DNA of 64,000 bases from Chloranthus sessilifolius. Its lineage: Eukaryota > Streptophyta > Magnoliopsida > Chloranthales > Chloranthaceae. The stretch is taken from the NCBI GenBank assembly GCA_021018995.1, contig CM037598.1, positions 44,570,685 to 44,634,684 on the forward strand, in the 5' to 3' direction. A model generated the notes under the pieces. The model had not been told where the DNA came from. It made no database searches and saw only the letters and a program-made list of their open reading frames with translations. Position numbers and translations under genes: made by a program. Within the stretch, counting starts at the first letter, position 1; each line of letters starts with the position of its first letter. Positions 85 to 50,413 of the stretch are shown one piece after another.

Positions 85-1073
85 TTATTCAAAACATAGA
101 CTTCTTCCACTCAAATTATGAACCCTAGGTTGCCTACAGATCTACTGAGATCTCTTCTCAAAATCTCCTAAAAAAACCAAACTATTATCTAGACACAATA
201 GACCATTACACACAGCTGGAGAAAATTGAGAAACTTACCCCAAACCACTAGGATTTCAAAATCACAGATGCTCAGTTGACCAAATCCGCCCTTGACAAGT
301 GTAAAATGATAGGGCAATGAAGATTAGTAATATAACCAAAGTAGGGTGCATGTGTTGGAGCAAAATGGACAGTGAAGAAGAAAGTTGGAATGCTCAGCTG
401 TGAGTTAGGGTTGAGAGCTTGTGCAGAGAAATCAAGTGAAGGAGAGTGCTGTCGCGAGGATTAAAGAAGCTGAAGCTTGAGCTTCACGAGGCTCTCGCAA
501 GGATCTCGCGAGGATAAAACAAATGGCATTGATCCTCGTACACAAATGAGGAATGAAATTTGTGCAGTTCAATTTGAACTGCGCGACTAGCTGTTCTATT
601 GTAAATGAGGGCCTCGTGAGGCTCTCGCTAGGATCTTCAAGTCATTTTGCTCGCGAAGTTCTCACGCAGCTCATTTGTTTCATAGTAGAGCCTGTCTAGG
701 CCATTTCTGTCATGGCTCTATGTTTCCACATCAATTTCAAAACATGCTCCCTTCATGATTCATGAATCATGCACACTTTTTCATGCTTTATTTACACAGA
801 TTACTCACAACATAGATCACTCATACTCACAAGCAAGCTCATAATGAAGCATAGAAACCAAGTTTCACAATTCACCTAACACCCAATTCACACATATAGA
901 TTACACAACCCTCAGTAAATGAAGATTCATGTACTTAGATATAGATTCCCTAGGCACTAAAATGCTCACATAAAATTCTACAGCACATAAAAAACATACA
1001 AAAAAAATAGTAAATGACAAAATTTCAACATCAAATAAAAATAGTTAAGTTACATAGTATACAAGGCTGGGGA
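85..1073 (-). other. Spacer between integrase and ORF3 of A2
   Basis: About 1 kb of non-coding sequence separates the integrase stop (1074) from the ORF3 ATG (84). The integrase-proximal part (about 700-1070) is AT-rich and holds nothing I recognise. The ORF3-proximal part holds the CTCGCGAG-type cluster described separately. Elements B and C have comparable leaders before ORF3. Confidence 0.6.
436..665 (-). promoter_or_regulatory. CTCGCGAG-type palindrome cluster upstream of A2 ORF3
   Basis: Several variants of a CG-rich word are packed here: GTCGCGAGGAT near 452, TCACGAGG near 484, CTCGCAAGG near 493, CTCGCGAGGAT at 505-515, GCGCGAC near 580, CTCGTGAGG near 610, and CTCGCGAAGTTCTCACGCAG near 651. 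The exact word CTCGCGAGGAT recurs in the U3 of the same element's LTR at 9534-9544. CTCGCGAG is a perfect palindrome. A role as a protein-binding array is inference. Confidence 0.55.
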
Positions 1074-2340
1074 TTATTGATCATTGGGAGGTTCATGAAG
1101 GTACATGGTTGTAGAGGTCTCCAAAGAATTTTCCACACATATCTTGAGTCTCTGACCATTCACTTTTATAATCCTCCTAGAGGTGGGGTCCATAATCTCC
1201 ACAGCCTCAGATGGGAATGCATGGATGATAGTGAAAGGTCCATCCCTTCTGGCTCTCAGCTTACCAGGAAAGAACTTTAGCTTGGAGTTAAAAAGCCATA
1301 CCTTAGCTCCATCAGAAAAAAATTTCTTGAGGAGGTTCTTGTCAAAGAATGCTTTGGCTTTTTCTTTATAAATCCTTGAATTGGAATAAGCATCCAACCT
1401 TAGCTCCTCTAGCTCAGATAGTTGCAGTCTCTTGTTTGCACCAGTAGCAATTAAATCCAAATTCAAGCCCTTAATGGCCTAAAATGCCTTGTGTTCCAAC
1501 TCTACTGGCAAATGACAAGCTTTGCCATAGACTAATCTAAATGGGGACATTCCAATTAGGGTCTTATAGGTTGTCCTATAGGCCCACAATGCATCATTAA
1601 GCTTCACAGCCCAATCCTTCCTATAAGTCTTAACTGTCTTCTCAAGGATATGCTTAATTTCCCTATTAGAAATCTCCACTTGCCCACTGGTCTAAGGGTG
1701 ATAAGGGGTAGCAATCCTATGAGTAACAGCATACTTCTTGAGCAAGCTATCAAAGTGTTTGTTATAAAAGTGGCTACCCCCATCACTGATTATGGCTCTA
1801 GGGGTGCTAAATCAGGAGTAAATATTTTCTTTGATCAATTTTAGGACAACCTTATGATCATTTGTCCTTGTAGCAGCTGCTTTCACCCATTTGGAAACAT
1901 AATCCATAGCTACAAGGATGAAGTTATAAACCATTGAAGGAGGAAAGGGGCCCATAAAATCTATCCCTCAAATGTCAAATAGTTCTGCAACAAGGATGGG
2001 TTTCAGTGGCATTGAATTTCTCTTTAAAATGCCACCATCCTCTGACATTTTAAACAGGCTTGGTAGTGTGTATGGGCATCCTTGAACAAGGAAGGCTAAT
2101 AAAAACCACAGTACAACACCTTTGCTCTATCTTTTTCCCACTAAAGTGACCCCACAGGCATTTTCATAGCACATGCTAAGAATACTGTTGATGTCACTAT
2201 CAGGGACACACTTTCTAAAGACCTTGTCCGCACTATAGTTAAACAAGCATGGATCCTCCCAGAAAAAATGTTTGACTTATGAGAAGAACAAGTCCTTGTC
2301 CATTTTGGACTAGTGGGAAGGGATCCTACCTCCAACAAGG
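1074..2340 (-). pseudogene. Integrase remnant of A2
   Basis: Minus-strand fragments match the integrase of element C block for block. The C-terminal part (1466-1074) has the run [16 protein letters not shown] and ends near HEPPND. The end of the catalytic core (1679-1479) has [16 protein letters not shown], which includes the third acidic residue of the DDE triad, and ALWAYRT. The region 1690-2340 keeps scattered homology to the zinc-binding region and the first two catalytic Asp positions, broken by stops and frame changes. Integrase inserts retrotransposon cDNA in the nucleus. This copy cannot be functional. Confidence 0.85.
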
Positions 2341-2375
2341 TAGTTGACTATGTTGGCAAACCAGGGGACAACTAA

Positions 2376-4727: not shown

Positions 4728-6095
4728 TGTCAACCTATCAAATAGAAGATAGAACCTGTCGAAGGCAACTCTTAACCTATTGAATGGAGTACAAAGTGGA
4801 CTCAGAACCTGTCAAAAGCTTCCCTGAACATCACGACACACGATTTGGGAACTTCTTAGTTCTAGCCATATCAGCAGCTTGCTTCAGTGCTCTGTGCACA
4901 CATTCCAAGGCACTTTAACAACCCTTGGGGATATTTTTGAGACGCAAATGGGAGCGAATGGGAACCCTCTAACCACTTAACATGTACTTGTCTAGTTTAG
5001 ACCAATTAGGGGAGAGTTTCTGAAAGCAAACTCAACTACATCAGCAATTCAGATTAACAGAATTATTCCTTTGAGCTCTAATTGGCTGAAATAGATCTGA
5101 GGATAGAGAGGAAGACTATAAAAGCCTGGGGAGTTTATAGAAGAACCATCCAAAAATTGAGAGAGCTCAGGCCAAATCCGAATTCCTATTTCCATCCTTC
5201 CCTTTTCCTTCTTCCCCATTCACTATTTAGACCAACCATGGTTGGCTAAACCCTTTTAGTAGCTAGGGTGAGGTTGAGAGCTATTTAAGAGGTTTAAAGC
5301 TTTGTAGGAGGATTAGATGTTGCACTGATTGTAGATCTGAGAACAATTAGGCTGTAAGTATATTGATTAAGTAATTATTGAATGTAAAGTTAATTTGGAT
5401 CCATAAATCTTGTGATTATCATTTGATTTCCCTAGATCTAATATCCCTGTGGATGCCTGAGCTTGTAGCCTTGCATCCACAACATCTACAATAGTTTAAT
5501 TATTCTAATTAAGATCCTTAAATTAGAGGAATCTCTTGGATGATCTGTGACCATTCAAGTGGACAAATCGCAGCCTTAGGATCACTCCAATTCTCGGATT
5601 GGTGTTGGAATCTTATACCTTGCATTTGAGGTTGTAGCCGATGAAGGATTGTTGCAAATTAGTTTCCTGTACTGCCTTTGAACCAAACAATTTTTCGTAA
5701 AGACCAAAATCCCTAGCTATTATTCTCTCCCTTTTGATCTTAATCCTGTTCTCCATCTCCCTAAATCTGTGTTTTAATCAGTTCTATCTCATTTGCATTT
5801 TTATTTTCTATAGTTCTAGTAAAGTGACAACCCTTTAGAAACCTCTCCTCTTTCCTCTCTTGCTTTGTTTTAAACTAGGATAGGCTAGAGTGCCAGATCT
5901 GACATAGATCTGGAGATTTACTCCATTTTGAAGCATATTTCCCTGTGGACATACCCTCACTTATCCCTTAAAGCTTGCTGCAATAGCTCTGATTCTTGTA
6001 GATCTGATTGCTTACCTTGATCCCATTTCTCTGTGATTTTACCTTTAGTTTGATATTTTTAACCCTTTAATAATTATTAGGTAAGTAATACAATA
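4728..6095 (+). repeat. LTR of fragment A1 (possibly 5'-truncated)
   Basis: The right edge is set by the PBS at 6102 and by alignment of the LTR end (CAATA here, CAACA in C). A TATA box (TATAAAAG) is at 5117-5124. A 32-nt hairpin shared with A2, B and C is at 5540-5571. The U5 block beginning TTTCCCTGTGGAC near 5938 also aligns with B and C. Upstream of the TATA box there are repeats of an AACCTGTCGAA-like word (4730-4810), which would be this element's counterpart of the U3 words in the other elements. Confidence 0.7.
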
Positions 6096-6101
6096 AGTTT
6101 T

Positions 6102-6119
6102 TGGCGCCGCTATCGAAGA
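6102..6119 (+). other. Primer binding site of A1 (tRNA-Asp type, decayed)
   Basis: TGGCGCCGCTATCGAAGA follows the LTR end and resembles the TGGCGCCGTTGCC... primer binding site, complementary to tRNA-Asp, that is typical of Athila and Tat elements. The first eight bases are perfect. Confidence 0.75.
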
Positions 6120-7773: not shown

Positions 7774-10134
7774 TGTTGAATTATTTTAAGATTGTTTGTG
7801 CTTTTATTATGAAGAAAGTGATAAAAATGTGGTATAAAAATCAGATTACACAAAGGGGTAGGAAATGGAATGATCAGCATAATAGACAGCAATCTAAAAA
7901 TATACAGTCCTACATCCAGGGCCTGTTGTAATAAGTTTTGATAAGAAAGGGTTGTCCCATAGGGAAATCTGATCTAGAACCACAAGAGTTGTATAGTAGA
8001 CCTCCAGATCTAGCTACAAATCTGGCAATCCTAAAGAAAGGGAGTTTTGAGGTGTCACTACCTATACTACTTTAAAAACAAATAATAAAACTAAAGTTAA
8101 AGAAGGGGATTAGAGAAGGATGGAAATGGAGTGAGAAAATAATGTAAAAATGATGAGAAATAGATAGCTAAGGTTAAGCCAGCAATGTAACTCAGTGTTA
8201 GAACAAGATCTGCAACATCCCTTCACTTGGCTACAAGCACAAGTGCAAGGTAGAAGAATCCAACTAACTCCTATGGTTTGCACTACTCTTAAGGCTATAA
8301 TCTGTCCTCTTGAATGATCACAGATTATCCTAGGGAGGTGATCCAATCACAGGTGCTAAATTTAGAATATGAACACCATTGCAGACCTATGTTGGAAGGC
8401 TACAAGCTTATGCATTCATAGGAACAAACAGTCCTGGAAATTGAAGTGGAAACCATAAGAAATCCCATGCTAAATGAGGACTTAGACTCAGCTGGTCATT
8501 GCAATAAAAAGGCCTGCAATGACCTAGCTCACAAGTCAGCAATCTCTATAAAAACTTGGATCTAAACACTGATGATGGTGATGCAAAATAGAGGAGAGTT
8601 TAGCTCAGCAATAATCTCTCACTTGGCTACAAGCTCAAGTGCTGAGAAGAAGAATCTATCTAAACCCTATGATCTAGATCAGCCCTAGGGCTATACCCTA
8701 TCCACTTGAATGGCCACAGGCTATCTCAAAGGTTATCCTAAACACAGATGAAGGAGATAGAACATGAATATTACTGTTGTCACCATGGTTGTAGGGCTAC
8801 AAGCTCATGCAACCATGGGATCATCAAATCCATACACATCTATATGAAAAATACAGAGAAAATATGGATCTAATGGAACTTTGAACATGTCATTTCATTG
8901 ATTAAAAGGAACTTACAATGAATGCCCACAAGACAACAGTCTATGCAAAGAATCCCAAAAAGAGCTCTCTATGTAATCATAAAATCGATTACAATGTAGA
9001 AATAAACTCAGCTTCAACAAAGAACTTAGCCCAACATTGTTGTTGTGCTATGGCAAGAATAAAAGGAAAGAAAAAGAGAAACTAAATCCTAACCCTAATT
9101 CTAAACATAAGTTATGATCCAGCTATTCTCGGATGTTCAACAAAACAGCTTAATGTTGTATTTATACAATCTTTGTAGCTGTTGTGTGTAATAGTCAATT
9201 AGAAATAGGGAGGTTTGGAGTGGATTTTATAGCTAATCTGTGGCCCTTGGATACTTTGGGATGTAGAAAATAGCTTACCATCTCGTGATGTGTGCCCTAA
9301 TTGCTTTGAAACCCTAAAAAAGTCCCTATGTATGAACTAAGAAGTGGGGAGCCCATGCCCCACGAGGTTGAGTCTGCTTATTTTACCTCTCATGTGGTTC
9401 TCATGTGGCTGAATTAGCTCTTGAAAGAACTCGCTAGGTTCAACTTACTATGAATAGTACAGCTTGCACAGATGGGGTTCCAGGTGGCCCAGGTAACGAG
9501 GATCTTGTTAGGCTGAATTGCGGCTCGCGAGGATAGATTTTGAGCTTCACATGAATGATCGCCAAGATAAATTTGAGCATCTCGCATGGATGGCTATGTC
9601 TATTAAGTGCGCGAGGTCTGTGCGACGCAAGCCTTCTGAAGTTTTGACCCTCACGAGGACTGCACGAGTTGCTTTTCTGGAGCTGTACTACAGTGCACTG
9701 AGTGAGATCTGCATGATCTTTTTATTCGTTGCAAGCTTGAGCTTTGCGAAAACTATAGAAGTGGATTTTTTGGGCAAATTGAATTGCGCGAGGGGTACTC
9801 TATGCTTGTCTGATGCTGTGCAGAGCCTGCTGCATCAAGCTTCTCTGCTTGGGTCCATCTTCCTTTCATATGTTGGATTTCTAGGGCACACATAGGCACA
9901 ATCAAAATGGTCACCATGGTATGCACCACCTTGGTGTCTCCTCTGTTCTTCACTCAGCTTTAATATTTGGCTTTTAATTCTCTCTTCCTTGGCCTCTAAA
10001 GCTTGACTATTGCACTAAGTTGTAATTTTATTCTTAACTAGAAAACATGCTTAAAAGGTATTTATTAGATGGCTCTAAGGTGTAGTAAAGGCTACGTTAG
10101 AAGGTGAAAAATAATATTTTCCAGTGACTAAACA
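7774..10134 (-). repeat. 5' LTR of A2
   Basis: On the minus strand it begins TGTTTAGTCACTGG, aligning with the LTR start of B (TGTTAAGACCTG), and ends in CAACA before the PBS. The TATA box is at 9159-9166 (TATAAATA on the minus strand). U3 upstream of it (about 9350-9800) is packed with GCGAGG/CTCGCGAG-type words. Downstream, in the transcribed part, the 32-nt hairpin occurs twice (8693-8724 and 8297-8328) inside a tandemly duplicated block of about 400 bp. The U5 block TCCCTATGGGACAACC lies near 7950. Confidence 0.85.
9350..9800 (-). promoter_or_regulatory. CTCGCGAG-type word cluster in U3 of A2
   Basis: About a dozen variants occur, including CACGAGG (9360), TCGCTAGG (9430), AACGAGGAT (9495), CTCGCGAGGAT (9534-9544), GCGCGAGG (9610), CACGAGGAC (9652) and GCGCGAGG (9785). 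They lie just upstream of the TATA box in transcription order. The same words occur before ORF3 at 436-665. Confidence 0.55.
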
Positions 10135-11279: not shown

Positions 11280-11940
11280 CCTGAAATGAGCCTCGCTCAG
11301 CTAACCCAAGCTTTAGAGGATTAAGGAGAAATATGCCTCGCGCAGTCCAACTGAGCATCCCAAGACTCTACAATAACTTCTCACGCAAATGATTGACTGA
11401 AGAGCTTTAGAAGCACATCCTCACACAGCTCTTGTGAAGTTTAAGAGTAGAACACATCGCGCAGTCTCGTGTAGTTCAAAGCAGACCTCTCTCAACCTTG
11501 CAGTTAACTCGAGCGGTGAGAAGAAGAGCTTGAAGACTCCACTTACGGTATCAGCGCGATCGTCGCAAGATGTAATTATCAGAAGAGAACTCCATGTGCA
11601 GTTCTCGCGCCATTCAAGAAGAAAGCATCCTTGCGAAGGCAAAGCCATCCTCATGAAGATCATTTAAGACATGGAACCTCGCGCAGTTCAGAACTCATTA
11701 AAGACTTGCGAGGTAACTCGCGAAGTCCAGTGAAGAGAAGTGCTCGCGAAGTTCTCGCGCTATTCAAATCTGTCCTCGCGAAGATTAACCCAGCGATCAT
11801 GCAGCTACCTTGTGACTGCTTGAACCCCAACCCAGCGACATCTGAGGCTTTAATGTCTACTCAACCTCGCGACTGCCTGAAGAGCAAACCAAGCCAACCT
11901 CGCGACCATTGAAGTTTCAATATCAAATCATCCTAGCGAA
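11280..11940 (+). promoter_or_regulatory. CTCGCGAAG-type word cluster in U3 of B
   Basis: Repeated variants include GCCTCGCGCAGTCC near 11335, CTCGCGAAGTCC near 11718, CTCGCGAAGTTCTCGCGC near 11743, CCTCGCGAAG near 11773, and CCTCGCGAC near 11865 and 11899. A few copies have decayed to CTCATG or CTCACA, as CpG loss would produce. The same words occur before ORF3 at 15415-15645 and in the 3' LTR at 19360-20075. Confidence 0.6.
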
Positions 11941-12136
11941 GAGCAAAAGCTACCATGTGGCAAGTCTGGAAAACAATGGCTACCTGTGAAGCTTAGAACC
12001 TCAAACTTCCATCTCTTCAGCAGAGGACATAGTGGGAATTTCCAACAATTAGGGCATGCACTCGCACGCTCAAATCTTCGTGCACGCGCCCTAAGGCATC
12101 GAAGGATCACTATTCGGCCATGTGGCATTATTAAAA

Positions 12137-15091: not shown

Positions 15092-15921
15092 TGTTAAGAA
15101 CTGTGCACCTTTGTATGATATGTACTTTACAGTTTAGAGGAATTTGTAGTGATCTTGTTGGAGTCTGAGTTTAGTGCTTGAATGCCTACTTTTATTCTTG
15201 TTCCCTTTGTTGAAAATTTTAAGTGCTTGAATGATGATGGTGTTGTTTTAATGTTTTTCAAGATGTGCGAATTTAATGCTTTGAGAATATGGGAATTTTT
15301 GAATGTCTTATAATGCTTATGGGCATCCCTCGAAGAGATCCTGTGAGAGAAACCACCCATAAAACATAGGTCAAAAGGCTGCCTAGTGGGTGTGTGATTT
15401 CTGAGTCTATTTAAGACGTCGCGAGGTTTTAAAAAAAAAAATTAAAAAAATTGGTTTGGTTTCCTCTCGTGCAGTTCATAAAGAATTACTTTGTTTTGCC
15501 TTCACGAGTTCAGATATAATTGTGTGGGCTTCCTCGCGCAGTTTAAATGAACATCCAATCTCGCGACCCATTCAGCCTATCGAGCGAGCATATATTTTTG
15601 AAGCGCGCCGAGCCTCGCGATATTTAAAATTCAATCTCGCGTTGCGTTTCTTTGCTGCTTTCTCTTTCCTCTCCTGCCAACGAAACCCTAGCTCCCACTC
15701 CTCCTAATCTCTCTCCTCCAGCATCCTGTCTACAATTCATCACTCACTTTGAAATTTTAGCGTTTTATTCTCAAAGCTTCCATCAACAGTTGCCCCCTGC
15801 TAGGAGCTCCTGTGGTCTACCGTGCATCAAATTGAACAAAACCCTAACTTTTAGGGTAAGACTCAGCTTTTGATTGTTTTCTTTCAAAATTTCAACTGCA
15901 CACTTGCCAAGGAGAATCTTA
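15092..15921 (+). other. Leader between gag and ORF3 in B, with pol missing
   Basis: Where A2 and C carry about 4 kb of pol, B has only about 830 bp of non-coding DNA. The first 320 bp resemble nothing I know. The rest holds the CTCGCG word cluster, a possible promoter and a 5'-UTR-like segment with teloboxes at 15683 and 15838. Confidence 0.7.
15415..15645 (+). promoter_or_regulatory. CTCGCG word cluster and possible ORF3 promoter of B
   Basis: Words: GTCGCGAGG (15419), CTCGTGCAG (15465), TCACGAG (15501), CCTCGCGCAG (15532), TCTCGCGAC (15559), CCTCGCGATATTTAAA (15613-15628) and TCTCGCGTTGCG (15635). TATTTAAA at 15621-15628 could serve as a TATA box. AAACCCTA teloboxes follow at 15683 and 15838, and the ORF3 ATG is at 15922. 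The cluster repeats the vocabulary of the LTR U3. Promoter function is inferred. Confidence 0.5.
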
Positions 15922-17244
15922 ATGGCTCTTAAAAGTGCACCTGTGAAGAGAGCCAGGGACCAGGCTCCCGTGGAGCTGGCCCCTAAGAAAGCCAAGTTCT
16001 CTACGACACAACAAAAAGGGAAGGAGGTGGTTCCTGAGGTGGCTGCAAAAATGCCTGATTACTCTACACCCTTTAAGCTCCTCATTTCCATTCCTTTAGA
16101 GCCTGAAGCCATTTTTGATATATCTTTCTTTGAATCTAAGTCGTTGTCATCACCTGCCATTGAGTTCTTGCGCAAGGCTAGTTTGTTCCCCTTGATGCAA
16201 ATGATTCTTGTACTAGCCTATCCTAGGTTAGTGCAACTCTTTTACCAGCACCTTAGGGTCAGACCAGACACACATGGGCAGCCAGGCCTCCTTGTGTTAG
16301 TTGACAATTTTGAGATGCTGCTTAGCCCAGCGTTGATTGCTGAAGTCATGGGCATCCCTACCATTTTTTATCTCAACTGTGATAATGGTGCCCTTGTGAG
16401 TGCCCCCCTTGATACCATTGCCCAGGCCCTTACCAGAGGTTTGAAGGCCACAAGGGACTCCTTCAGAAGAAGATATTTGGATCCCAAACTGCTGTTCATC
16501 AATCAAGTGCTGAGGAAGAATATCTATTGCTCCGGCCATCAGCAAGAGAGGAGGACACCAATTGCTGATGTTCTCTATTCCTTCTCTCTGGGCCATGGAT
16601 TTAATGCTGCATGGTTGATTTTTGAGGCCATGAAGGATATGATGGTGAAGCTCAGGCTGCAAAAGATGTTCCACCCTCTCCCCTATGGAAGACTCATCAC
16701 CAAATTACTTCTGAGGGGAGGGTACAAGATACCAGTGGGGGAGTTATCTGGTGACCTCACTCCCACCACTTTTGCCAAAAGACAATGGGGGATCAGTAGA
16801 AGTCTGATGGATCCCCAGAAGAAGAAGAAGAAGGCTGAAGCTCAGGTTGTTTCTGAGCAGGGAGGGGGAACTACAGTGGCAAAGGCCACCCCTGCCCCCA
16901 AAAAGAAGGCTAAAGCCCCTGCTCCAAAGAAGGTGGTGCGAGCTTCTGTCACCTCTGCTTTTGCAGCAATACCTCCATCCACCACACTTGCCTCTCCATT
17001 AGTTTCTTTGCCTATTCCATCTCTCCCTTTCCCTCTCTTATCTCCCTTTTCCATTCCACCTCCCACTGTGATTCGTTCCTGGGTGGAAAGTGTTGAACCC
17101 CATGACAACACTCCTCCTTCACCCACCTTACCTCAATACACAGCCCCAGTATCTCTAGCATCATCTGACCTCAACCCTGACAGCCCTCCCTTGATAACAT
17201 ACCTTAAAAAGAAAATCTCCCACCAAACCCCCTTCCACCTCTGA
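15922..17244 (+). CDS. ORF3, intact (putative plant transposon protein type)
   Basis: 440 codons from the ATG at 15922. An upstream in-frame ATG at 15874 exists, but 15922 (MALKSAPVKRARDQ) fits the start style of ORF3 in the other elements. Residues 1-40 are basic and nuclear-signal-like (KRARDQ, APKKAK). About 60-310 form the family domain, with LFYQHLRV, LIAEVMGIP, GHQQERRTPIADVLYSFSLG and PLPYGRLITKLL. A Lys-rich patch follows (DPQKKKKKAEA), then a Pro/Ser-rich tail. No signal peptide or membrane segment is visible, so an envelope role is doubtful. This is the longest intact frame in the window. Its molecular function is unknown. Confidence 0.8.
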   Translation: MALKSAPVKRARDQAPVELAPKKAKFSTTQQKGKEVVPEVAAKMPDYSTPFKLLISIPLEPEAIFDISFFESKSLSSPAIEFLRKASLFPLMQMILVLAYPRLVQLFYQHLRVRPDTHGQPGLLVLVDNFEMLLSPALIAEVMGIPTIFYLNCDNGALVSAPLDTIAQALTRGLKATRDSFRRRYLDPKLLFINQVLRKNIYCSGHQQERRTPIADVLYSFSLGHGFNAAWLIFEAMKDMMVKLRLQKMFHPLPYGRLITKLLLRGGYKIPVGELSGDLTPTTFAKRQWGISRSLMDPQKKKKKAEAQVVSEQGGGTTVAKATPAPKKKAKAPAPKKVVRASVTSAFAAIPPSTTLASPLVSLPIPSLPFPLLSPFSIPPPTVIRSWVESVEPHDNTPPSPTLPQYTAPVSLASSDLNPDSPPLITYLKKKISHQTPFHL

Positions 17245-19167: not shown

Positions 19168-21128
19168 TGTTAAGACCTGAAAAGTACCACTTTTCACCCC
19201 TTAACATAACCTTTGATTAGACCCATAGCCACCTAATAAGTTCTTATAAAGTGTTTTATGTAGGTAATAACTAGCAGTGAAATAAAGCCAAGAATCCTGC
19301 TAAGGAGCCCGTTTTAGCACCAGAAGTCCCTCAGAAGGATGAACTTTGAATCCAGACCTGAAATGAGCCTCACACAGCTAACCCAAGCTTTAGAGGATTC
19401 AGGAGAAATATGCCTCGCGCAGTCCAACTGAGCATCCTAAGACTCTATAATAACTTCTCACGTAGATGATTAACTGAAGAGCTTCAGAAGCACAAACTCG
19501 CGCAGCTCTCGCAAAGGTCAAGAGTAGAACACATCACGTAGTCTCGCGCAGTTCAAAGCAGACCTCTCTCAACCTCACGCAGTTCGCTCAGAATGGCTGA
19601 GAAGAGAGAGCTTCAGAAGACTCCTTGTGCAGCTGTCACGCAGTCGTCGCGGGATGTAATTATCAGAAGAGAACTCCTCGCGTAGTTCTCGCACCATTCA
19701 AGAAGAAAGCATCCTTGCGAAGGTAAAGCCATCCTCACGAAGATCAATTAAGACATGGAACCTCACGTAGTTCAGAACTCATTAAAGCCTCGCGAGGTAA
19801 CTCGCGAAGTCCAGTGAAGAGAAGTGCTCGCGAAGTTCTCGCACTGTTCAAATCTATCCTCGCAAAGATCAACCCAATGATCACGCAGCTACCTCCCGAC
19901 TGCTTGAACCCCAACCCCGCGACATCTGAGGCTTTGATGTCTACTCAACCTTGCGACTGCCTGAAGAGCATACCAAGCCAACCTCATGACGGTTGAAGTT
20001 TCAATATCAAATCATCCTAGCGAAGAGTAAAAGCTACCACGGGACAAGTCTGGGAAACAATGGCTACCTAGCGAAGCTCTGAACCTCAAACTTCCATCTC
20101 TTCAGCAGAGGACCTTATGGGAATTTCCAGTGATTAGGGCATGCACTCCCACGCTCAAATCTCCGTGCACGCGCCCTATGGTATCGAAGGATCAGTATTC
20201 GGCCACGTGGCATCGTTAAAATTAGGGTTTCCTAACCCTAATGCGCCGCCACACCACTGCTATAAAAACCCATACTTAGCTTAGGTTTAGGGGGGGCTTG
20301 GACCATCTTTTCTTCTACATCCTGGAATAGCTGGGAACGCATCTCATTTCTTAGAGACTTGATCTGAGATCATTTTACTTTTCTTTTTCTAGCTATAAGT
20401 AGTTTTCTTTTTCTTTTTACCTTCTCTCCATAGTCCAGCACTTGCTGGCTATGTCTTTGTATGCTTTTTGAACTAGATTAATGGAAGTTTTGTAATAGGA
20501 TTTGTACTCTGTAGGATTTGTGTTTGAATGTGAGATGCTCTGTGTAAGGCTGCTACCTTGTGATCCGCCATTGCTTTAGCTATGTTTCAAAGCAATGGAG
20601 GACTGATTCTAAGGGTCATTCAGATCCAAGTGACCTATGTGTCTGGGCTATCATGGTCCTATACAGCCTTAGCCCCACCACGAGACCCACTAGATCTGAA
20701 ATCCCTATGAGCGCTTGAGCTGGTAGCCTGGTGACCATGGTGGTGGCAGCGATACTCTTGTTTTGTCTTGGGCTCCGTGAGGAGGATAGCCTCTGGGATA
20801 GTCTATGACCATTTGAGTGGACAAGTTATAGCCTTAGGGTGATTCTAATCCACCGATCCAAGATGGATCTTTCTTCTTTACACCTGAGCTTGTAGAAGCC
20901 TGGTGGGAGATTGTATGGAGGCAGACTCTCCTATATTTTTATAGATCCGCCATCAGATGTTGGATCTGATCTGGTTATAGAGATTGTAGGCTTGTGACTG
21001 GACCATTATAGCCTCACTTAAGCAATGGACAGCTTGATCGAAGGTTGTACTCAATCTCTTTCTTTAATTTTTAAATTACTTTTACCACCAACCAATAAAA
21101 GCAAGCACAAACTTAGAAATCGCCAACA
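19168..21128 (+). repeat. 3' LTR of element B
   Basis: 1961 bp, TGTTAAGACC to CGCCAACA. The U3 word cluster is at about 19360-20075 (for example GCCTCGCGCAGTCC, CCTCGCGAGG, CTCGCGAAGTCC). The inverted telobox pair is at 20222-20241, the TATA box at 20261, and the 32-nt hairpin at 20798-20829. It contains a 502-bp block (20334-20835) missing from the 5' LTR and lacks the 5' LTR's 650-bp block. Confidence 0.9.
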
Positions 21129-23798: not shown

Positions 23799-23803
23799 CG
23801 GAT

Positions 23804-29707: not shown

Positions 29708-29960
29708 AATTCGAACAGAAAAATGTACTACAGAGTGCTTTTCGAAAAGAATCTGAACATTTCGAAAAGAACCTGAACTCTGCGAAAAGAACTAAAAGCT
29801 CCAGGCTTAGTTTTCAAAGAGTACCTGAACTCTTCAAAAGGATGATTGACCTTTTTGAAAAGAACAGAACTCCTTGCGAACAGAACCTGAACTTTGTGAA
29901 AAGAGCTTCAGGAGTCACAGTACCTTGCGAAAAGTTCCCTAAACTATGTGAAATGGTATT
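29708..29960 (+). promoter_or_regulatory. TTTTCGAAAAG word cluster in U3 of C
   Basis: About ten forms in 250 bp, including AATTCGAACAG, TTTTCGAAAAG (29739), ATTTCGAAAAG, CTGCGAAAAG and CTTGCGAAAAG. Several are followed by AACCTGAACTC at a spacing of about 20 bp. TTTTCGAAAA is a perfect palindrome. The 3' LTR repeats the cluster at 43670-43915, and the leader before ORF3 carries it at 38557-38880. Confidence 0.6.
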
Positions 29961-38476: not shown

Positions 38477-39188
38477 TGGTATACAACTGTACAATATGTT
38501 TTTATTCTGTAGTTTTTGCATAGTTTTCTATTTCTCTGTTTTTAGTTATGTTTGTTCTCTTTTCGAGAAGTTTAAATATGTGAAAAATTAATTCGCAAAG
38601 TAAAAATTGTATTTTCGCAAAGTTCAATTTGCTTTTCAAAAAGGATCTGTATTTGTAACGAACTGCTCGAAAGCAATGATTTGCTTTTCGAATAGTTGTT
38701 TCTGAAGCCATTTGCTTTTCGAAAAGTTGTTTCTGAAGCTATTAGCTTTTCGAATGGTACTGATGCCATCCTCTATTGTAAAAAGGATTGTTTTTATCTT
38801 TTCAAAAACTTAAAAATTACTTTGCGAAAGTAACTTTGAGCATATTTAAACCCTTTCAAAGTAAGGGTTTCATATTCGAAAGCTTTCTGAGAACGTCCTG
38901 TTTCACAGAAACCCCATTTCTTTCTTTCCTTGCGTGATTTTAGAATTCAGCCACACTTTTCTTCACATTTGTTTGATCATTTAAGCTTGAAGAGAGGGAC
39001 TTTAGCCTCTGGTTTTGGTGGACTTCAGCGAGCAAGCAACACGTTCAACAAAAACCCTAGATTTCGGTCTTTTTCTGTGCATTTCCTCTGTTTATCATTT
39101 GCAAAGTTTGATTTTGTGTCAGCATTTGTTGTGGGCATTTTTATACACAACTTTAGAATCGGGAAAGCTGAAAAATCACTGGCTGCCA
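38477..39188 (+). other. Leader between integrase and ORF3 of C
   Basis: Non-coding. It holds the TTTTCGAAAA-type cluster (38557-38880), TATTTAAA at 38843-38850 and an AAACCCTAG telobox at 39052-39060 before the ORF3 ATG at 39189. The order of parts is the same as in element B. Confidence 0.6.
38557..38880 (+). promoter_or_regulatory. TTTTCGAAAAG word cluster before ORF3 of C
   Basis: Forms include CTTTTCGAGAAG (38559), ATTTTCGCAAAG (38612), GCTTTTCGAATAG, GCTTTTCGAAAAG (38715) and GCTTTTCGAATGG (38746), TTTGCGAAAG (38821), and ATTCGAAAGC (38874). Three of them are spaced by a TTGTTTCTGAAGC repeat of about 35 bp. The vocabulary matches the LTR U3 of the same element. Confidence 0.6.
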
Positions 39189-41638
39189 TGTTTCCAAAAT
39201 CTTCTACTAAGAAAATTAGCAAACCAACCCCAAAAGAAAAAACCAAAGCTTCAGCCAAAAAAAAACTATCAATGGATAGAGCTGATAGGATTGAGAAAGG
39301 GAAGAAGGTTAAACATGAGGAACCCATCCCAGCAGCTGCTAGTCCTGAGCCTGAGCTTCCTCCTCTGTCTATGCATTTGGTACTGCCAAATCCATTCATT
39401 GAAGCTCAGAAGCTGATTCCTGAGCTTATCGTGGATGAAACTTTTTTCGTCAACAAACCGGACTGTCAGCTATCTTTAAGATACATTAGGGATGCCTCAC
39501 TGAGCAATATCCTTACCCCTCTGCCAGAGAAAATTTATCCGCGAATGGTGAAATTATGGTACCAAAACCTGGTAAAAGTGAGAGAAAGATGCTGATGTCC
39601 CTACTCTTGTTATCTTCATTGATGATTGTGATCTAACTGTTACATATGAAGACATTGGGAATGCTTTAGGGATACCATTTCAATATGATCCTGCTGGTCC
39701 ATTGGCTGCACCAGAAGCAGCCTCTTTCAGAGAAATGGCTGCATATTTAACCCAAGGGATCCTTGGAACTGGACAATCCATAATGAGGAGAGACCTAGCA
39801 CCTCAATTTTTACTGATGGATTCAATTTTGAGGGGAAGTTTTTATGTCACTAGGCACAGCCAAGAAAGGAGGACACCAATTTTAGAGGCTCTCTTTCATT
39901 TTTCTAAGGGGCAATTTTTCAATGCCCCTATGTTAAATTTTGAAGCCATGGCTGATATTAGTGCCAAGTTGAAAAAGGAGCAGAAATTAGCTGGAATCCC
40001 ATTTGGTAGACTGATCACAGCCCTACTAGGAGCTAAGTTTGATATTGATGACCAGGAGCCATTTGAAGTCATAACTCCTCATACTTTTGGGAAAAAGGCT
40101 TGGACTAAAAGCCAAGCAATGCTGAAAAGAATGAGAGAGGAAGGTGAGCTCACACTGCAATTGCTCTTGAGCACACTGCATCTGCTGCTAGTGGACTCCA
40201 TACATGAACTGCCCTGCTCCCTTAGAATGCTTTGCAGGACCACAGGGTGACCAGCTCTTTAGCTGCACCCATTCTTGAAGAAGTTGTCCTTCCTGTGGTG
40301 ACCAGCTCTTCAGCTGCACCCATTCTTGAAGAAGTTGTCATTTTACCCTCCTCACCTAGTCCAGCTCCTGCCACTTCACCTATTCCAGCAGTCCCATCTC
40401 CCATACCCACCATTATCCCAATTGCAGACTCCCCCTCTACACCAACCACTCCAGCCATACTCACACCACCAATTTCTCCCACCAATGCCCAAGACCTGGC
40501 CACAGATTTTATTGAACAATCTCCTAGCACTCCTCTTCTCCAAAGCCTCTCAAGTTCACCTGCTCCTTCAGCCCACACACCTGAAGTAACCCATACCCCT
40601 GAACCTGAGATTTTCACTACAGAGGCTTATTCATCATTGATGGGGTCTATTTTTGAAAACGTTGGGCTTGAATCTGTCCCTATACCTGACCCTCCTCATT
40701 TCACTCACTTGGCTACTTCTCCCTTTACAGCCATTTCACCCATTGCACCTCCACCATCCACTTCAGTTTTACCAGCCCCTGCTATGCATACCACACCCAC
40801 ACCTGAATCAATTAGCCAAATATTTACCTTTCTCCAATCCATCCAAGCCCAACTACAGATCAACACAGATAATCAGTCTGTGACCAATGACCTTCTCCAA
40901 ACCTTAGCCTCCACATCCCACACAACTACCTTAGCCACTTTACCTGCTGTTGATGACCATGCTACCCAAATAGAACCTGAGGTAGTATTGGTTGACCCAC
41001 CCACCCTCACCACTACTGCCCATTCTACCCAAACTGAACCTGAGGTAGCTCTTGTTGAGCCCCCTTCACCTCTCCTCACTTTCTTTGATCAAGCCAATCA
41101 GACCGACCCTAAAGTCATCCTCCTGGACCCCTCTTCTCCCACTCCCACAGCTGGGATACCTTTGGTCCCCTACCATTCTATTCCCATTCCCAGATTTGCC
41201 GCTCTCAAAAGGGCTATGGAAGAGAATCCATATATCTGTCGAGATGTCCTCAAGGGGTTAGCTAATTTGCAAGCTTACATTAGAACCCCTTATGAAAACC
41301 AGATTAGGAAATTGGAGTTATTCATGAAATTTGAGAGAGAGAAAATGAAGGACCTGCTGGGTCAAACATTTCAAATGGTTAGGAGTGAGCAGCACAAGGT
41401 GACCATGTTGCAAGCACAGCATGAACAGGAAAAACTGAGGACTACTAGACTTGGAAAGTACATTGGCCTCACCAAAAAGATCAAATCAGAGGAATACACT
41501 GAGCTGCAAAACACAATCCTAGAGAAGGCTAAATCAAGTTCAGACTCCAATACTGATTTTAGTTCTGACTCTGACAGTGACTCCAGTTCTGATCCCATTG
41601 AACCAACTTATGATACGGATTTTTACCTCAGTTATTAG
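39189..41638 (+). pseudogene. ORF3 of element C, frameshifted
   Basis: Starts MFPKSSTKKISKPTPKEKTK, a strongly basic N-terminus. The family domain follows in two frames: LPEKIYPRMVKLWYQNLV (to about 39590) and, after a shift, HSQERRTPILEALFHFSKGQ and GIPFGRLITALLGAKFDI (39702-40250). Another shift near 40235 opens 40232-41638: a Pro/Ser/Thr-rich region, three TQTEPEVALV-like repeats, then a coiled coil (about 41330-41500) and an acidic Ser/Asp tail. A 51-bp tandem duplication (SSxAAPILEEVV) lies at about 40250-40345. No membrane segment is visible. The role is unknown. Confidence 0.75.
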
Positions 41639-43391: not shown

Positions 43392-43404
43392 AGGTTTGGG
43401 GGTG
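43392..43404 (+). other. Polypurine tract of C
   Basis: AGGTTTGGGGGTG directly before the 3' LTR start TGTTGAGAAC. Confidence 0.85.
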
Positions 43405-45256
43405 TGTTGAGAACTAGAAAATACCATTTTCCACCCTTTAACTTGGGCCTTGATAGACCCTTGAGAGAACTAAATAAGTGTTTTAAGTGCTTGTGTTACA
43501 GCTAACAATAAAGACAGGCTTAACCATGAAAGCAACCTAAAAGTGCCAAAAAGATGATAATCCATGTCGATCCAAAGGAAGAAAGAGAAGGGGCAACCTC
43601 ACTAGCTGTCAAAATGCCTGAACTGAAGAGGCAAAGACTTGGTCTCAACCCAAAAAAGAAATGTGGAGCAATTCGAACAGAAAAATGCACTACAGAGTGC
43701 TTTTCGAAAAGAATCTGAACATTTCGAAAAGAACCTGAACTCTGTGAAAAGAACTAAAAGCTCCAGGCTTAGTTTTCGAAGAGCACCTGAACTCTTCGAA
43801 AGGATGATTGACCTTTTCGAAAAGAAGAGAACTCCTTCGTAACTAACTTTGTGAAAAGAGCTTCAGAGTCACAAGATTCATAAAAGTTCCCTAAACTATG
43901 CGAAACGGTATTCTGGAGATTCCTAGCTTTTGCAAGGGTAATTCAATAATCTTTTTCATGCATCCCAATGCATTTAAAAACCTAGGGACATTCCAGAAGA
44001 TTCTAAGCACGAAGCGAAGGCATATTCCACCCCATGTGAGCACCCGAAGATGAAATCATTTGGCGGGAACTTCTAGAAGCTCTAACAGATTTTCAAATTG
44101 TATAACAGAATTGATGCTTATGTCACCTGATTGGCTGAACCAGATCGAGCAATTCTGATTGGCCAGAACAGATCTAGATCCTTGTGCTCGACTACCATTG
44201 GTTGATACAGATCTGAGCACTTCTGATTGGTCGATATGCATCTGAGCTAGACCTGGGGAAAACTATAAATAGATGAATCATTTGCCCAATTTGGGTATCC
44301 AGATTTTGAGTTTCATTCCTATTCCCCCATTTCCAAATCAGCTAGTTTGTCTGAAACCCCTGTAATAGCCTAACTTTTACTTGCAATTGAGAGCTGTGAG
44401 ATACCTCTGTAATTCAAAAGAAAATTGTATTCAAGACTACAAATCTGAGAGCTGTTTAAGCCGTGCTCTGTAATTGTAATGGTGAATTTGAAAAGGTTGT
44501 TGTAACCGTACATTCTCAATTGGATTCGTGTAAAGGATTCCCTCTGATCTCCTTATTGCACCAAACTCCTTTAGATTTACTATTTTTCATGCAATTTCCC
44601 CTGATTCATTAACCCTGTGGGAATTAGTGTTTGTAACCTAATCTCTCACAGCATTTGTAGTGATATTTCTTGTTCTAAATTAAGGGTTTAGATTAAAGAC
44701 TATTGGATGGTCTGTGGCCATTGAAGTGGACAGACCATAGCCATAAGCCTAAATCTAATCCTTGAGTTAGATTTATTTCTCTTACATCTGTGCTTGTAAG
44801 CAGATGAAGATTGGATCATCTCTCATTTGATCTGCAGTCATTCTCATTGTGTTTCAAGGACCAAATCAAAGTTAGATATTATTTCTCCATTTTTATAAGT
44901 TTACATCAAAATTCCCCCAACTCAGATCTGGATCATTTAGTGTAACTTTTACTTTTATCATTTAGTTAACGTGACAAATTCAACCTCCCATCTTATGTGC
45001 TCTGTAGATAGGATAAGAGGCCAGATCTGGTAGCTCAGATCTGGAGGTTTATCTTGCATTTTAAACAAATTTCCTGTGGATGATCTTTTACTCACTTACA
45101 TTTAAAACTTGTTACAATTGGCCCTGATCTTGCAGGCTAATTCACTTCTCTCTATGCTGATGTTTCTTTATTCTTTTTCCCAGATTCAGTATAACTTAGC
45201 ATTTGTAAACCTGTTTCCAAAACACAAATAAATCATGCACACTCAGAACCCCAACA
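43405..45256 (+). repeat. 3' LTR of element C
   Basis: 1852 bp, TGTTGAGAAC to CCCCAACA. It includes the TTTTCGAAAAG cluster (43670-43915), TATAAATA at 44264-44271 and the 32-nt hairpin at 44707-44738. It lacks the solo LTR E and so shows the empty site. Confidence 0.95.
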
Positions 45257-45261: not shown

Positions 45262-47715
45262 TAAGACAATTAAGTCGAGGAATGAGCTATCATCCAAAGC
45301 TCAGTAGAGAATATTGCATTGTTATTTCATATTGACAGTTTATCACTTTTTCATAGAAGAGCATAAAATAACATACGATTAACATGATGAAAGGCTGAAA
45401 TTATTCATGGTATAACAAGTGTGAGAAACAAATTGAACTGAAAATACATGCTGGCAAAAACAGGAAATGAACATGGTCAAGCTCCTGAGTTTGCGGGATC
45501 AGTTGTCAAGCTCTCGAGTTAGCGGGATCACTTCGACGAGAATAATTCAAGCTATCAAGTTAGCGGGATCACTTGTAAAACTCCCGAGTTAGCGGGATCA
45601 CTTGGACGAGAATAATTCAAGCTCTCGAGTTTGTGGGATCACTTGATTTACACTGGAGCAATAGCATATCAAAAACATTGAATTTAAAAGGGTCTGAGTA
45701 CTGACTCACGTAGATTGACCAAGAAATTTATTTGCATGTATGGCTTTATGATGCAATGTAATCAAAACTGTCACAGCTAGATAATAGCATTATTTATATT
45801 CAATGCAGAGTTCTTTACTAATGCTATATATTTATATCACTTTTCTCATCAGATTTCTAGCAATTCAGACTTTTATATTTCAGAGCTAATCAAGTCCATC
45901 AGCTTACATAAAACTCAAATTTTTCTCCTATTATGTTATTCAGTACTATCATGAATATTCATCAATTTCTTTCTATGAAAACTAGTGACAATGCATATAC
46001 AAGTATAAAATACCAACGTTAATTCCCTACCTGTGTGCATCAAATTTTATGTGTACTATCGTTGTTGATGCACGCTCAGGCATCTGAAGACCTTATGCGA
46101 CGTTCATTTCTTCACAATAGTTTAAGTGCTCCATGTGGCACCAAGCTAGTAATAATAGATTTATTTTAATAAACTAATATTTTATAGATGACCCAGGGGG
46201 TTATACATGGCTCACAGTGGACCAAGCTGAAAATAGGCAAGCGTCATGGACTCAAGGTCCAAAGTGCAGAAGATGTAGGCCAACCTACAAAAACCCAGAG
46301 CTGGGGAGGTTGCCGCAGCAACACACAGTACTTGCCGCGGCAAGCCCTTCAGCTGGCTTGCTTGCCGCGGAAACCTTATAGTGTTGCCGCGGCAAGCCTG
46401 TCTATGTTTGGCTTGCTGGGGTTTTGTTGGGTTCTTCTTGACCTTATGATTTGCAGTACTTTTCCTTGATATGTTTTTCTATTTATTTCTCTTCATATAT
46501 ATATCTATACATATATATTTATACTAGCTTTGTATAAATCTGTAGCAAGTTGCTATATATATATATATTTGTTTTCCTATTTTGAGATTTACAGATCTTC
46601 AATGAAGATCCGGAGTGCAATGATCTGCACTCTACTTCATTTCATATTTAGGCTAATTTCTGAGCTAAAGTTCTTTCTGATCACCTCTTTTGTATACAGA
46701 CAAACAATTAACTAACCTTTTGGAGAATTTGTGTTAACACTCGACCATCGATGCCGTTTTTGCCGAGTTGAGAGTGATGAGATTGTTACAACGAAATGCT
46801 ACTGTGGATTTCACATAAGTTAGCCTCAATCTAGTGGATGCAAGAAGAACAATTGAATTTGCGGAATTCTGAAATGCAAGATGGTTGCATATGGTATTAG
46901 AGGTAATAAGGACTGAGCAGGGATCACTGTATGTGATCCATGGTCTTTAGCTTTGGAGACCCTAGGTGTAGGATTCTCTTGCCATGAAACTTAAAGGAGG
47001 AAGATGTCGGCTCTGTTTAGAAAGTTTATAAGGGATTGATGCACTTTGCGTGCATGAACCCGTAAAGTGACTCATGTGAGTCGTGTTACAATTTTCTCAT
47101 GCAAGTAGCTTATAAGCTACATTAAGATAACCTCCTATGAGGGCCACCATATATATATGTAGTTTGTTACCGAAAAAACAAAACCAAGAAAATCTATTGT
47201 ATATTGCTTGAACCGGTTTTAGTTGCTAAGCATTTTAGTATATAAAACAAAACAGGGAGAATTACTTGTATGTGTTTTCAAACACTTGTGTAAGTTGAAA
47301 ACAAAACAAAATTCTAGTGTTTATATTTTTTTTTGTTTCAGGTAAGACAAAATGGGAAAACTACCAATGGCCTCCTTCTCTCTTCTTGGTTAGTTTTAAA
47401 ACGAAACTAGCTACATTATAAGCTTGAATCTTGGCTATAATTCCATGCAAATACTCACACGTTTTGGGTCTGTATAGGCAGATAAAACCAATCGATTTTG
47501 GCTTCAGCTTAAAATGTAGATACTACTGATTAGGTATAAGAACCTGATTATTGATTAAATTTGTATTATTATAATATGGTTGTATCTAGTTTGAAGCCCA
47601 ATGTCAAATGTCTTACTTTGTGCACAGATTTATCGGTTAGTTTAGTGAGGTCCTTACATGTGAGTGACCTGACCAAACTCTTACCACTACAGTGTTAATT
47701 CTGGGAATCGTTACA
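45262..47715 (-). repeat. 3' LTR of T, main piece
   Basis: Continues T's LTR after element C and aligns with 56066-58534. Minus-strand TATAAATA is at 45829-45836. Four TTGCCGCGGCAA-type words lie at 46310-46395, upstream of the TATA box in transcription order. AGCTCTCGAGTTAGCGGGAT repeats lie at about 45478-45640. Confidence 0.9.
46310..46395 (-). promoter_or_regulatory. TTGCCGCGGCAA palindromes in U3 of T
   Basis: TTGCCGCAGCAA (46310), TTGCCGCGGCAA (46332, perfect 12-bp palindrome), TTGCCGCGGAAA (46362) and TTGCCGCGGCAA (46384). The other LTR has diverged forms at 57117, 57139, 57169 and 57191. The same word occurs four times before ORF3 of T. Confidence 0.65.
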
Positions 47716-47729: not shown

Positions 47730-48164
47730 AGGCATTTTCGTCCTCGAAAATCAATCGAGACTATCTGGGTAATAGTAAAGCTGCAGTGTTCATACTATCT
47801 GTGGTGTTTTATTCACCAAATTTATCACAAGACAAGATGAATCATTAAACAGGCAAAACCAACATCAAAGCTACAGCTGTGAGAAAAAACTGAAATTTTG
47901 GAATTAACCACTCATGTGGCACCTGATTTCTGAGTTCATGTGTCTTACTGAACATAGAGTTATTTCTCTTTCTTGTGGCACCTGATGAGTAGTATTTGAA
48001 AAATTTTAACGTGGATGCTCAAAGGAACATTAGACCATTCACATACAAATACCAAAGTGAACTACTCCTTATCATTATTAAAACAAAACCGGTAGTATCT
48101 CAAACATCAGAATTTCTACAATCACTAAACTAAGTTGCCATAAATAGGCTTGGTTTATTTGAGA
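47730..48164 (-). other. 3' untranslated region of T
   Basis: About 430 bp between ORF3 and the PPT. No recognisable motif other than the CGAGGACGAAAA block at its end. Confidence 0.6.
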
Positions 48165-49526
48165 TTAATTCAAGTAATAATATTTACCAGGCTGATGATC
48201 TGTTTGCTGTTGGCCCGCTGAGGATGTACCAGCTTCCTGTTGTTGTTGTTGGAAGTCTTGCTGGAATTCCGGGACCAATAATGCTACGTTGCGGGTATAT
48301 TGGGTGATGTAGTTGCGCACCCACCCAATGTAAGTATTTACAGCACTTTGAAAGGTATGCTCCATCATGATATTCGTCGCTTCTTCAACATAATCGATAC
48401 GTTGATGAAGCATGTAGTGATTTCGATAAAGATTATCGAATTGAAGGAGGGTTTGCTCATGGTTTTCACGCATGAGCTGAACAAGGTCGGCGGTGGTGTA
48501 GGTCCCTTGAGCCAGAGGGACCGAATCGGGTCGAGGTTGGGGTTATCGTTGAGGAGGGACGGGGATTTCTTGGGATATTTCTTGTTGGACTTGGGGAGGA
48601 TGACGAATTTGTTTCGTTTGGCGGTTATTTACCGCTTGAAAAGAGGGTTGGTAAATATTTCTCCAAATTGTTGGGCTAAAGACCCGCATGTTATCAGTGC
48701 GGACCTCTTCGCCAACTGAGATTTGAAAGGGGATGAGATTGACACTATCAAAGTGTCCTTCAAACATGGGAGAGATTAGTCTAGGGTAGGGGCAAGAAGG
48801 CATGGAAGGTGACACGTTGCTTTATAGATGCTCATTGGCATACTTGAAGCCTTCCCAAACCACCCTAGGACCACTTATCCATCATCCTTCATGGACGGCA
48901 AAAAGAGCTTGTAAGAGAGCATCTTGGCGCTCTCGTTCATGCTGCATGGGGTACAAATAATATCGAAATATACAATCCAAAAATCACATCCGTTATGGTT
49001 ACTGGCTGTGACGTACGGCAAGACTATGGTCAGAAGCGATCTGACCATTAGTCATTTTCGAGGTGATGTGGTGAATTTTCGCATCCCTCTGTCAGGGTAT
49101 TTGTAGTCTAGAAGTGACGTCATAGTCAGCACTATAGTCCATTGCTTTCGCTATGTGCAGGATATTGAAATAAAATTTATGACCATCAATTTCGGTCTGT
49201 AATTGACCGACAGTAGTGGTGACGACCAGATTTTGATAAAATAATCAGACTAAACGGGGGTAAAATTGGTTATGGATCGGTTGATACAAGGCACTTAACT
49301 GCACATGTTCGATATAGTGAAGTGACCATGCAGTCTGGTTATTTGGGGTCAGAAGTTTATCGTCCACGATCCATTCTGGTTCCATCGCTTTCGCAGCCCA
49401 CCACGGAATGGGCTGTTCCGTCACTTCAGGTGGATCGATTGGCTCGCGTAAGGAAGAAGGGCCTTTGCCCTTTTCTTGAGCCAAGGACTTCTGGGGTTTC
49501 GACACGCGTACTTTTCTAGGTGGCAT
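48165..49526 (-). pseudogene. ORF3 of Tekay element T, broken
   Basis: On the minus strand the ATG at 49526 gives MPPRKVRVSKPQKSLAQEKG, a basic start like ORF3 of C. Then come ALYQPIHNQFYPRLV, a stop at 49245, and in the same frame LFYQNLVVTTTVGQL and FYFNILHIAKAMDY. This is the block seen as YPRLVQLFYQHL and LIAEVMGIP in B. After several stops, CPYPRLISPMFEGHF (about 48790) matches PLPYGRLITKLL of B. The C-terminal part (48473-48168) is Gln-rich with heptad-like sequence. Position (after the chromodomain, same strand, inside T's LTRs) shows it belongs to T. Confidence 0.7.
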
Positions 49527-50413
49527 TTTTGAATCTAAAAGATAATAAAAGACAAAACAAAACAAAAACAAGAGGAGGGAGTTTGCTTTGTTTTACCTCT
49601 AAGCTTCACAAAAATCAGTCGGAAATGAGAGTTAAATCATAAACAAAAGGGGTTGTTGGAGTAGATCAGGTAAATGCAACGGCTATGGATCTGATTTGAA
49701 GGTGTGCATGCATGAATCTTTGCTTGGAAGGTTGAAGAAGACGAAATATCCACACTTCTTTAATAGAAAACGGTTTAGAAATGGGTTTCGGACCCACCAT
49801 AACATAACAAAGTTGTCGCGACAACACTTTAAGCTTGCTGCGGCAAGTGACTTGCCGCGGAAACACTTAGCCCTTGTCGCGGCAAGGAGGTCTTGATGGT
49901 GAATGGCCCGAATTTCGGGGCTCTAGTGTTCTTAACAGGTAAGGGGTTTATAGAAAATATGTATTAGTAATTTTGATGTATTTTGCTATGTTAAAATTTT
50001 TTATTTCGATGAAATTTAATCCATTTTGCAATATTGTGTATACAATTATTATAAAAATATTATATTTGGCCATCAATGGCCCTTGGATTAGTCACTTGGG
50101 AAAGGTGGTAGTAATTTGGGATACACCTGCGCTTCGGTGTCCCATAGGTGTCACCATATACATTATTTTTTCATCATTTTATACAATTTATTTTTATAAT
50201 TTAATTGTATTTTAGTGTTAACATAAAATAATGCTATTTTTGAGGTTCAAGATTTATGACACTTAATTCATATACTACGTTGGATGTGATTCTTATATAC
50301 TGATGCAGGGCACATTAACAATAATTTTAAAACAAGATAAACTCATAATGGAAATAAGTTAAATTCATTTGACTATGTATATGTATACTGTAAGGGGATT
50401 TTCAGTACGTACC
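49527..50413 (-). other. Leader between pol and ORF3 of T
   Basis: Non-coding, AT-rich, with the palindrome cluster at 49813-49885. I see no clear TATA box between the cluster and the ORF3 ATG. Confidence 0.6.
49813..49885 (-). promoter_or_regulatory. TTGCCGCGGCAA-type palindromes before ORF3 of T
   Basis: Four 12-bp words in 73 bp: TTGTCGCGACAA (49813, perfect palindrome), TTGCTGCGGCAA (49835), TTGCCGCGGAAA (49852) and TTGTCGCGGCAA (49874). They match the words in T's LTR U3, which ties this leader and ORF3 to T. Confidence 0.65.

What the first reader, a model, noticed from the sequence alone, without database searches (positions are those of the whole stretch)
436..49885. Each element repeats its own short, mostly palindromic word in U3 and again before ORF3
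Seen directly. A2 uses CTCGCGAG(GAT) at 9350-9800 (U3) and 436-665 (before ORF3). B uses CTCGCG(A/C)AG at 11280-11940, 19360-20075 and 15415-15645. C uses TTTTCGAAAA(G) at 29708-29960, 43670-43915 and 38557-38880. T uses TTGCCGCGGCAA at 46310-46395, 57117-57202 and 49813-49885. D, more weakly, uses AAATCGTAAATC in its LTRs and near 28360-28412. The words differ between elements, but the two positions do not: just upstream of the TATA box in the LTR, and just upstream of ORF3. All but D's word have a palindromic CG core. Inference: the word is bound by an element-specific factor, perhaps ORF3 itself, whose sequence looks nuclear. A known parallel is the VANC proteins of VANDAL DNA transposons, which recognise short repeated motifs in their own non-coding DNA and counter silencing. 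I know of no such system for LTR retrotransposons.
Basis: partly seen in the sequence, partly recalled or inferred. Interest (0 to 1): 0.92.

Follow-up and report, generated by a model that had tools for sequence, protein, structure and literature searches.

The report
Shared DNA words at retrotransposon promoters
Several plant retrotransposons each carry their own short, mostly palindromic DNA word in two places, the main promoter in the long terminal repeat and what looks like a second promoter in front of an extra gene, which suggests that one DNA-binding protein, perhaps made by that gene, controls both.

Summary
It recurs in the genome: 30 of 30 C copies (one is the window's own) and 10 of 10 further T copies keep the word in the leader. 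Exact spaced word pairs number 1337 (C) and 988 (T), against 0 for the reversed pattern. T is a chromodomain element, not Athila, yet has a degraded Athila-like ORF3 after pol. Leaders look like promoters: a TATA-like box at a near-constant place in 18 of 20 related leaders. Best reading: ORF3 has its own promoter, sharing family-specific operators with U3 for one factor, most likely ORF3 itself (foamy-virus Tas logic, VANC-like words). Binding is inferred only. The layout is not new to LTR elements: Sireviruses have palindromic repeats in the LTR and 5' of ENV (PMC2829016). New here: Athila and a chromovirus, genome-scale counts, promoter anatomy. CpG decay gave no sign of methylation protection.

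The parts
9430..9660 (-). A2 U3 word cluster (CTCGCGAG type); LTR 5' edge at 10134, TATAAAA near 9231
436..665 (-). A2 ORF3 leader word cluster; top internal window for sharing with own U3
1..84 (-). start of A2 ORF3 (ATG at 84); continues left of the window in L049 (199-aa open piece)
11337..11941 (+). B U3 word cluster, 5' LTR (LTR from about 11093; TATAAAAA near 12176)
19360..20075 (+). B U3 word cluster, 3' LTR
15415..15645 (+). B ORF3 leader word cluster, with TATTTAAA at 15621
15922..17244 (+). B ORF3, open frame, PF20167 (Transposase_32) match E 8.9e-9 (35.9 bits, below the 45-bit cut-off)
29738..29934 (+). C U3 word cluster, 5' LTR (LTR starts 29443; TATA-like ATTTAAAA at 30020)
43700..43858 (+). 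C U3 word cluster, 3' LTR
38559..38809 (+). C ORF3 leader word cluster, 7 words spaced 52,21,52,31,31,52; TATTTAAA at 38843
39188..41638 (+). C ORF3 region (ATG at 39188), split over three frames
57117..57202 (-). T word cluster in the right (5') LTR
46310..46395 (-). T word cluster in the left (3') LTR
49813..49885 (-). T ORF3 leader word cluster, 4 palindrome-like words spaced 22,17,22
48165..49526 (-). T ORF3 region, Athila-like, several stops
50414..50833 (-). T integrase C-terminus with chromodomain, upstream of the ORF3 leader on the same strand

Best explanation
ORF3 of these elements is a separate transcription unit with its own internal promoter. The U3 promoter and this internal promoter carry arrays of one family-specific operator word. 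One sequence-specific, probably dimeric DNA-binding protein occupies both arrays and couples full-length and ORF3 transcription. The most likely binder is ORF3 itself, acting as a self-encoded transactivator or anti-silencer. Shown: paired arrays in four elements, family specificity (C, T and A2/B differ), recurrence of the C and T arrays in the genome, a TATA-like box and a 5'-splice-like site in leaders of A2 relatives, an Athila-like ORF3 in a chromovirus. Inferred: transcription from the leader, dimeric binding, and ORF3 as binder.
For: Leader is the top internal match to own U3 in 4 of 5 elements (12-mers). 30 of 30 C copies (29 plus the window's own) hold 6-10 words in the leader and none in about 2.8 kb upstream. 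In 17 of 18 pieces running from C leader into the 3' LTR (13 of these copies are also among the 30) there is a second cluster; in the 11 whose LTR start was found it is at about +304 to +511. 10 of 10 further T copies (78-90% identity) keep 3-5 palindromes in the leader, 7 of 10 U3 pieces 2-6. Exact pairs 1337 (C) and 988 (T) against 0 for reversed patterns; the 10-bp spacers of the 12 T pairs printed vary. TATA-like box at a near-constant place in 18 of 20 A2-clade leaders and GGTAAG in 14 of 20. In those 18, 80 of 83 CTCGCGAG-like words lie upstream of the box. C leaders keep CATATTTAAACCC exactly in 25 of 30, with 1 mismatch in 4. T, a chromovirus, has both an Athila-like ORF3 and the double array. 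A2 and B, which share a word, have the closest ORF3 pair (90/194 identical; B-C 64/189; A2-C 34/92). Basic N-termini of A2, B and C ORF3.
Against: No binding, expression or methylation data. ORF3 has no recognised DNA-binding fold: no significant PDB match (best E 0.33) and an unusable model (pLDDT 34). A blind count of repeated 8-mers inside each leader put a CG-bearing word first and above 5 shuffles in only 6 of 20 A2-clade leaders (L083, L085, L087, L088, L090, L093; L088 owes it to an inserted LTR) and, of the window elements, only in C; old copies may have lost CpGs. U3s of the A2-clade relatives were not obtained, so the pairing is untested there. The word/ORF3 agreement rests on three pairs and could reflect overall phylogeny. 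L083, with ORF3 70% identical to A2's, has mainly CTCGAGAG-type words, so words can shift with modest protein change. T's leader has no TATA-like box 3' of its words, and A2's own leader none at the usual place. CpG decay shows no protection. The T ORF3 match is weak, in pieces, and two T pieces tried gave no PF20167 match. Six ENV-bearing Sireviruses lack the repeats.
Confidence: 0.5

Rival explanations
1. The words bind host transcription factors. Each family has adopted a host site and placed it in both of its promoters so that ORF3 and the full-length RNA are switched on together. ORF3 does something else.
For: Repeat arrays, some palindromic, are common in TE cis-regulatory regions (stated in PMC10760457, passages). 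Bousios et al. thought small changes in the Sirevirus repeats may allow different nuclear factors (PMC2829016, passages). CpG decay gives no sign of self-protection.
Against: Words differ between families of one genome while staying the same at both places. The set-up accompanies ORF3 even in a chromovirus. Among 13 Sireviruses with repeats, the nine with ENV have internal copies and the four without have none.
Confidence: 0.32
2. The leader array is an old copy of the U3 promoter, or of a tandem repeat, kept alike by gene conversion. The words have no factor of their own.
For: Array length varies by 31-bp units in C leaders. Some spacer sequence is shared between U3 and leader in T (by eye). 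In the T leader alignment spacers are more conserved than words (94% vs 88%).
Against: Spacers differ between U3 and leader in C (by eye) and vary around exact T palindromes in the 12 pairs printed.
Confidence: 0.1
3. The words act in RNA: palindromic repeats fold and affect small RNA production, splicing or packaging.
For: Clusters of palindromes in maize Sireviruses attract small RNAs (reported in PMC10760457, passages).
Against: U3 words lie upstream of the TATA box and so outside a transcript started there. Many short separate units fit DNA binding better than one RNA fold. No RNA fold was tested here.
Confidence: 0.06
4. ORF3 is an envelope-like gene expressed by splicing of the full-length RNA, and the leader is not a promoter. 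(This rival concerns the promoter, not the binder, so it is not exclusive of the others.)
For: Splice acceptors were predicted for BAGY2 and Athila env-like genes (cited in PMC2829016, passage).
Against: Leaders of A2 relatives have a TATA-like box (18 of 20) and a donor-like GGTAAG before the ATG (14 of 20). A donor there fits a transcript that starts in the leader. The word arrays have no role in this view.
Confidence: 0.12

Closest known systems
Sirevirus repeated motifs (RM) in LTR and 5' of ENV (Bousios et al. 2010, PMC2829016, passages read)
   Same: Element-specific palindromic words with CG in the core, arrayed upstream of the LTR TATA box and again 5' of the extra 3' gene; internal promoter proposed.
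   Different: Ty1/copia lineage; CGG-CCG core not shared by C or A2/B words; authors spoke of nuclear factors and could not conclusively identify an internal promoter. Here Ty3/gypsy Athila and a chromovirus, with a TATA-like box at a near-constant place in A2 relatives, B and C.
Foamy virus Tas/Bel1 with LTR and internal promoter (PMC4929722, passages read)
   Same: Works like: a self-encoded nuclear factor binding both the LTR and an internal promoter in the 3' part of the element that drives its own gene.
   Different: Animal retrovirus; no Pfam or PDB relation found for ORF3; binding unproven here; word arrays here are many and family-specific.
VANC anti-silencing proteins of VANDAL transposons (Hosaka et al. 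2017, PMC5735166, passages read)
   Same: Short family-specific motifs, tandemly arrayed in non-coding DNA and changing between families; array length varies between copies.
   Different: DNA transposons; VANC21 and VANC6 motifs are not palindromic as printed; demethylation demonstrated there, untested here.
Accessory genes of Grande and Retand (Tat clade)
   Same: Extra gene in the 3' internal region; [quoted passage not shown] The Retand TRP28 domain probably can bind DNA (abstract, same call).
   Different: Antisense ORFs in Retand, a different domain (PF04195), no U3-shared word reported in the passages read.

Membership tests
Athila lineage (A2, B, C) | Ty3/gypsy pol with Asp-tRNA-type PBS | tested here: inconclusive
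   C: met (PBS with 1 mismatch at 32814, RT before integrase). B: PBS with 2 mismatches at 13199, but no stretch aligning to C's pol. A2: pol aligned to C's, no PBS found. The Asp-PBS hallmark is recalled; no tree was made.
Athila lineage (A2, B, C) | 3' extra ORF of the PF20167 type | tested here: inconclusive
   B E 8.9e-9 (35.9 bits), C 0.0029 (18 bits), both below the 45-bit cut-off. Sunflower Athila extra ORF has partial similarity to the same domain. A2 by similarity to B.
Chromovirus, Tekay-like (T) | Chromodomain at integrase C-terminus and initiator-Met PBS | tested here: met
   PF24626 8e-24 and Chromo 0.00048 (20.4 bits, cut-off 25.1); PBS-type sequence with 1 mismatch beside the right LTR. 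The Tekay label itself is recalled; no clade tree was made.
Sirevirus RM system | Ty1/copia Sirevirus element | tested here: not met
   C has RT before integrase and T RNase H before integrase, the Ty3/gypsy order.
Sirevirus RM system | Palindromic repeats upstream of LTR TATA and 5' of the extra gene | tested here: met
   A2, B, C, T; B's word only half palindromic.
VANC system | VANC protein homology | tested here: inconclusive
   Pfam scans of ORF3 gave PF20167 in B and C and no other convincing family; no direct comparison with a VANC protein was made.
VANC system | Protein binds the motif and lowers methylation | not testable with these tools
   Only an indirect look: CpG decay equal inside words and after the array.
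Foamy virus Tas-like transactivation | Internal promoter ahead of the transactivator gene | tested here: inconclusive
   TATA-like box in 18 of 20 A2-clade leaders and, with at most 1 mismatch, 29 of 30 C copies; no transcript data.
Foamy virus Tas-like transactivation | Self-encoded protein binds both promoters | not testable with these tools
   No binding data; model unusable.

The most novel reading that the evidence does not exclude
Plant 'envelope-like' ORF3 is a self-encoded, sequence-specific regulator. ORF3 and its operator word form a portable cassette that works in Athila and has moved into a chromovirus, where U3 and ORF3 promoter acquired the matching word. Words diverge between families so that each regulator serves only its own family.
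Probability: 0.38. Interest if true: 0.9.

Novelty: new variant of a known kind. Interest (0 to 1): 0.72.

Why it matters
The role of the env-like third gene of plant retroelements has stayed open. A sunflower methylation study says it 'remains to be investigated' whether Tork and Athila encode such proteins and whether these modulate the elements' epigenetic landscape (PMC12844716, passages). The shared words give that gene a concrete, testable target: the element's own promoters. If true, three lineages (Sireviruses, Athila, a chromovirus) would share one logic of self-regulation, resembling foamy viruses more than enveloped retroviruses.

Tried and rejected
D's word: near chance and not in the top window; rejected. 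L088 seemed to be an A2-type ORF3 with a C word, but an inverted C-type LTR lies in its leader (by eye against C's LTR); not a counter-example. L086's leader is deleted: pol sequence runs to just before ORF3 (by eye). Both stay in the counts as misses. L083's U3 was sought as a prediction test, but the 801 bases fetched align to T's pol (72%, another chromovirus piece): uninformative. Structure of B ORF3: pLDDT 34, no fold search made. Relatives outside this genome: none for B ORF3 in the protein collection, none for C integrase in viral contigs. In one search the N-terminal piece of C ORF3 (C1) was read in the wrong frame, so it was not compared. Helical phasing: in C all 50 listed exact pairs (of 1337) are 20, 21, 30, 31 or 40 apart out of 13-43 possible, but duplicated units make these non-independent. 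T fits worse: of 50 listed pairs 29 at 21-24, 15 at 29-31, 4 at 36-39, 2 at 43, and 17 in inexact pairs. So it is not used as evidence. CpG protection: no effect. Linkage of T ORF3 to the chromodomain in other copies and the CCTCGCGAGG pair count were asked repeatedly and never answered.


Full report
What is in the window. The window is a nest of plant LTR retrotransposons. C (plus strand, 29443-45256, 5-bp duplication GCAGC) sits inside the left LTR of T (minus strand, about 28936-58536). T sits inside D (minus strand, LTRs about 23803-25288 and 59548-61005). B (plus strand, LTRs from about 11093 and 19168) and A2 (minus strand, running off the left edge) lie to the left. C has an Asp-type primer site and RT and integrase domains. 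B has an Asp-type site, gag-like stretches and an open ORF3, but nothing that aligns to C's pol. T has a chromodomain integrase and an initiator-Met-type primer site, so it is a chromovirus, not Athila. Even so, after its pol lies a degraded ORF3 whose pieces match those of A2, B and C: T4-C2 12/32 identical, z 10; T1-A2 24/86, z 7.7; T1-B 26/83, z 4.3. Two T pieces tried gave no PF20167 match.

Noticed in passing
window 11093-21060: B keeps gag-like stretches and an open ORF3 but nothing aligning to C's pol; its ORF3 had 49,004 first-look candidates in the genome, 96 scored at 84-100% identity, so a pol-less element may be mobilised by relatives.
   Followed up: partly
window 17502 and 41799: Perfect extra copies of the polypurine-tract string TTTGGGGGTGTG lie 160-260 bp after ORF3 in B and C; one extra tract is mentioned for Athila4 and Calypso in PMC2829016.
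   Followed up: no
window 45511-45629 and 56289-56436: T's LTR holds a second, different tandem repeat with CTC(C/T)CGAG-like units, nearer the 3' end of the LTR.
   Followed up: no
window 30183-31762: C's 5' LTR has about 1.6 kb not aligned to its 3' LTR.
   Followed up: no
window 5446-6741: A plus-strand Athila-like piece with a primer-site-like sequence at 6102 (5 mismatches) lies within the A2 region, perhaps a rearranged second element.
   Followed up: no
window 22383-22790: Fragment with DUF1985 (E 5e-9), a domain recalled from plant transposons, left of D.
   Followed up: no
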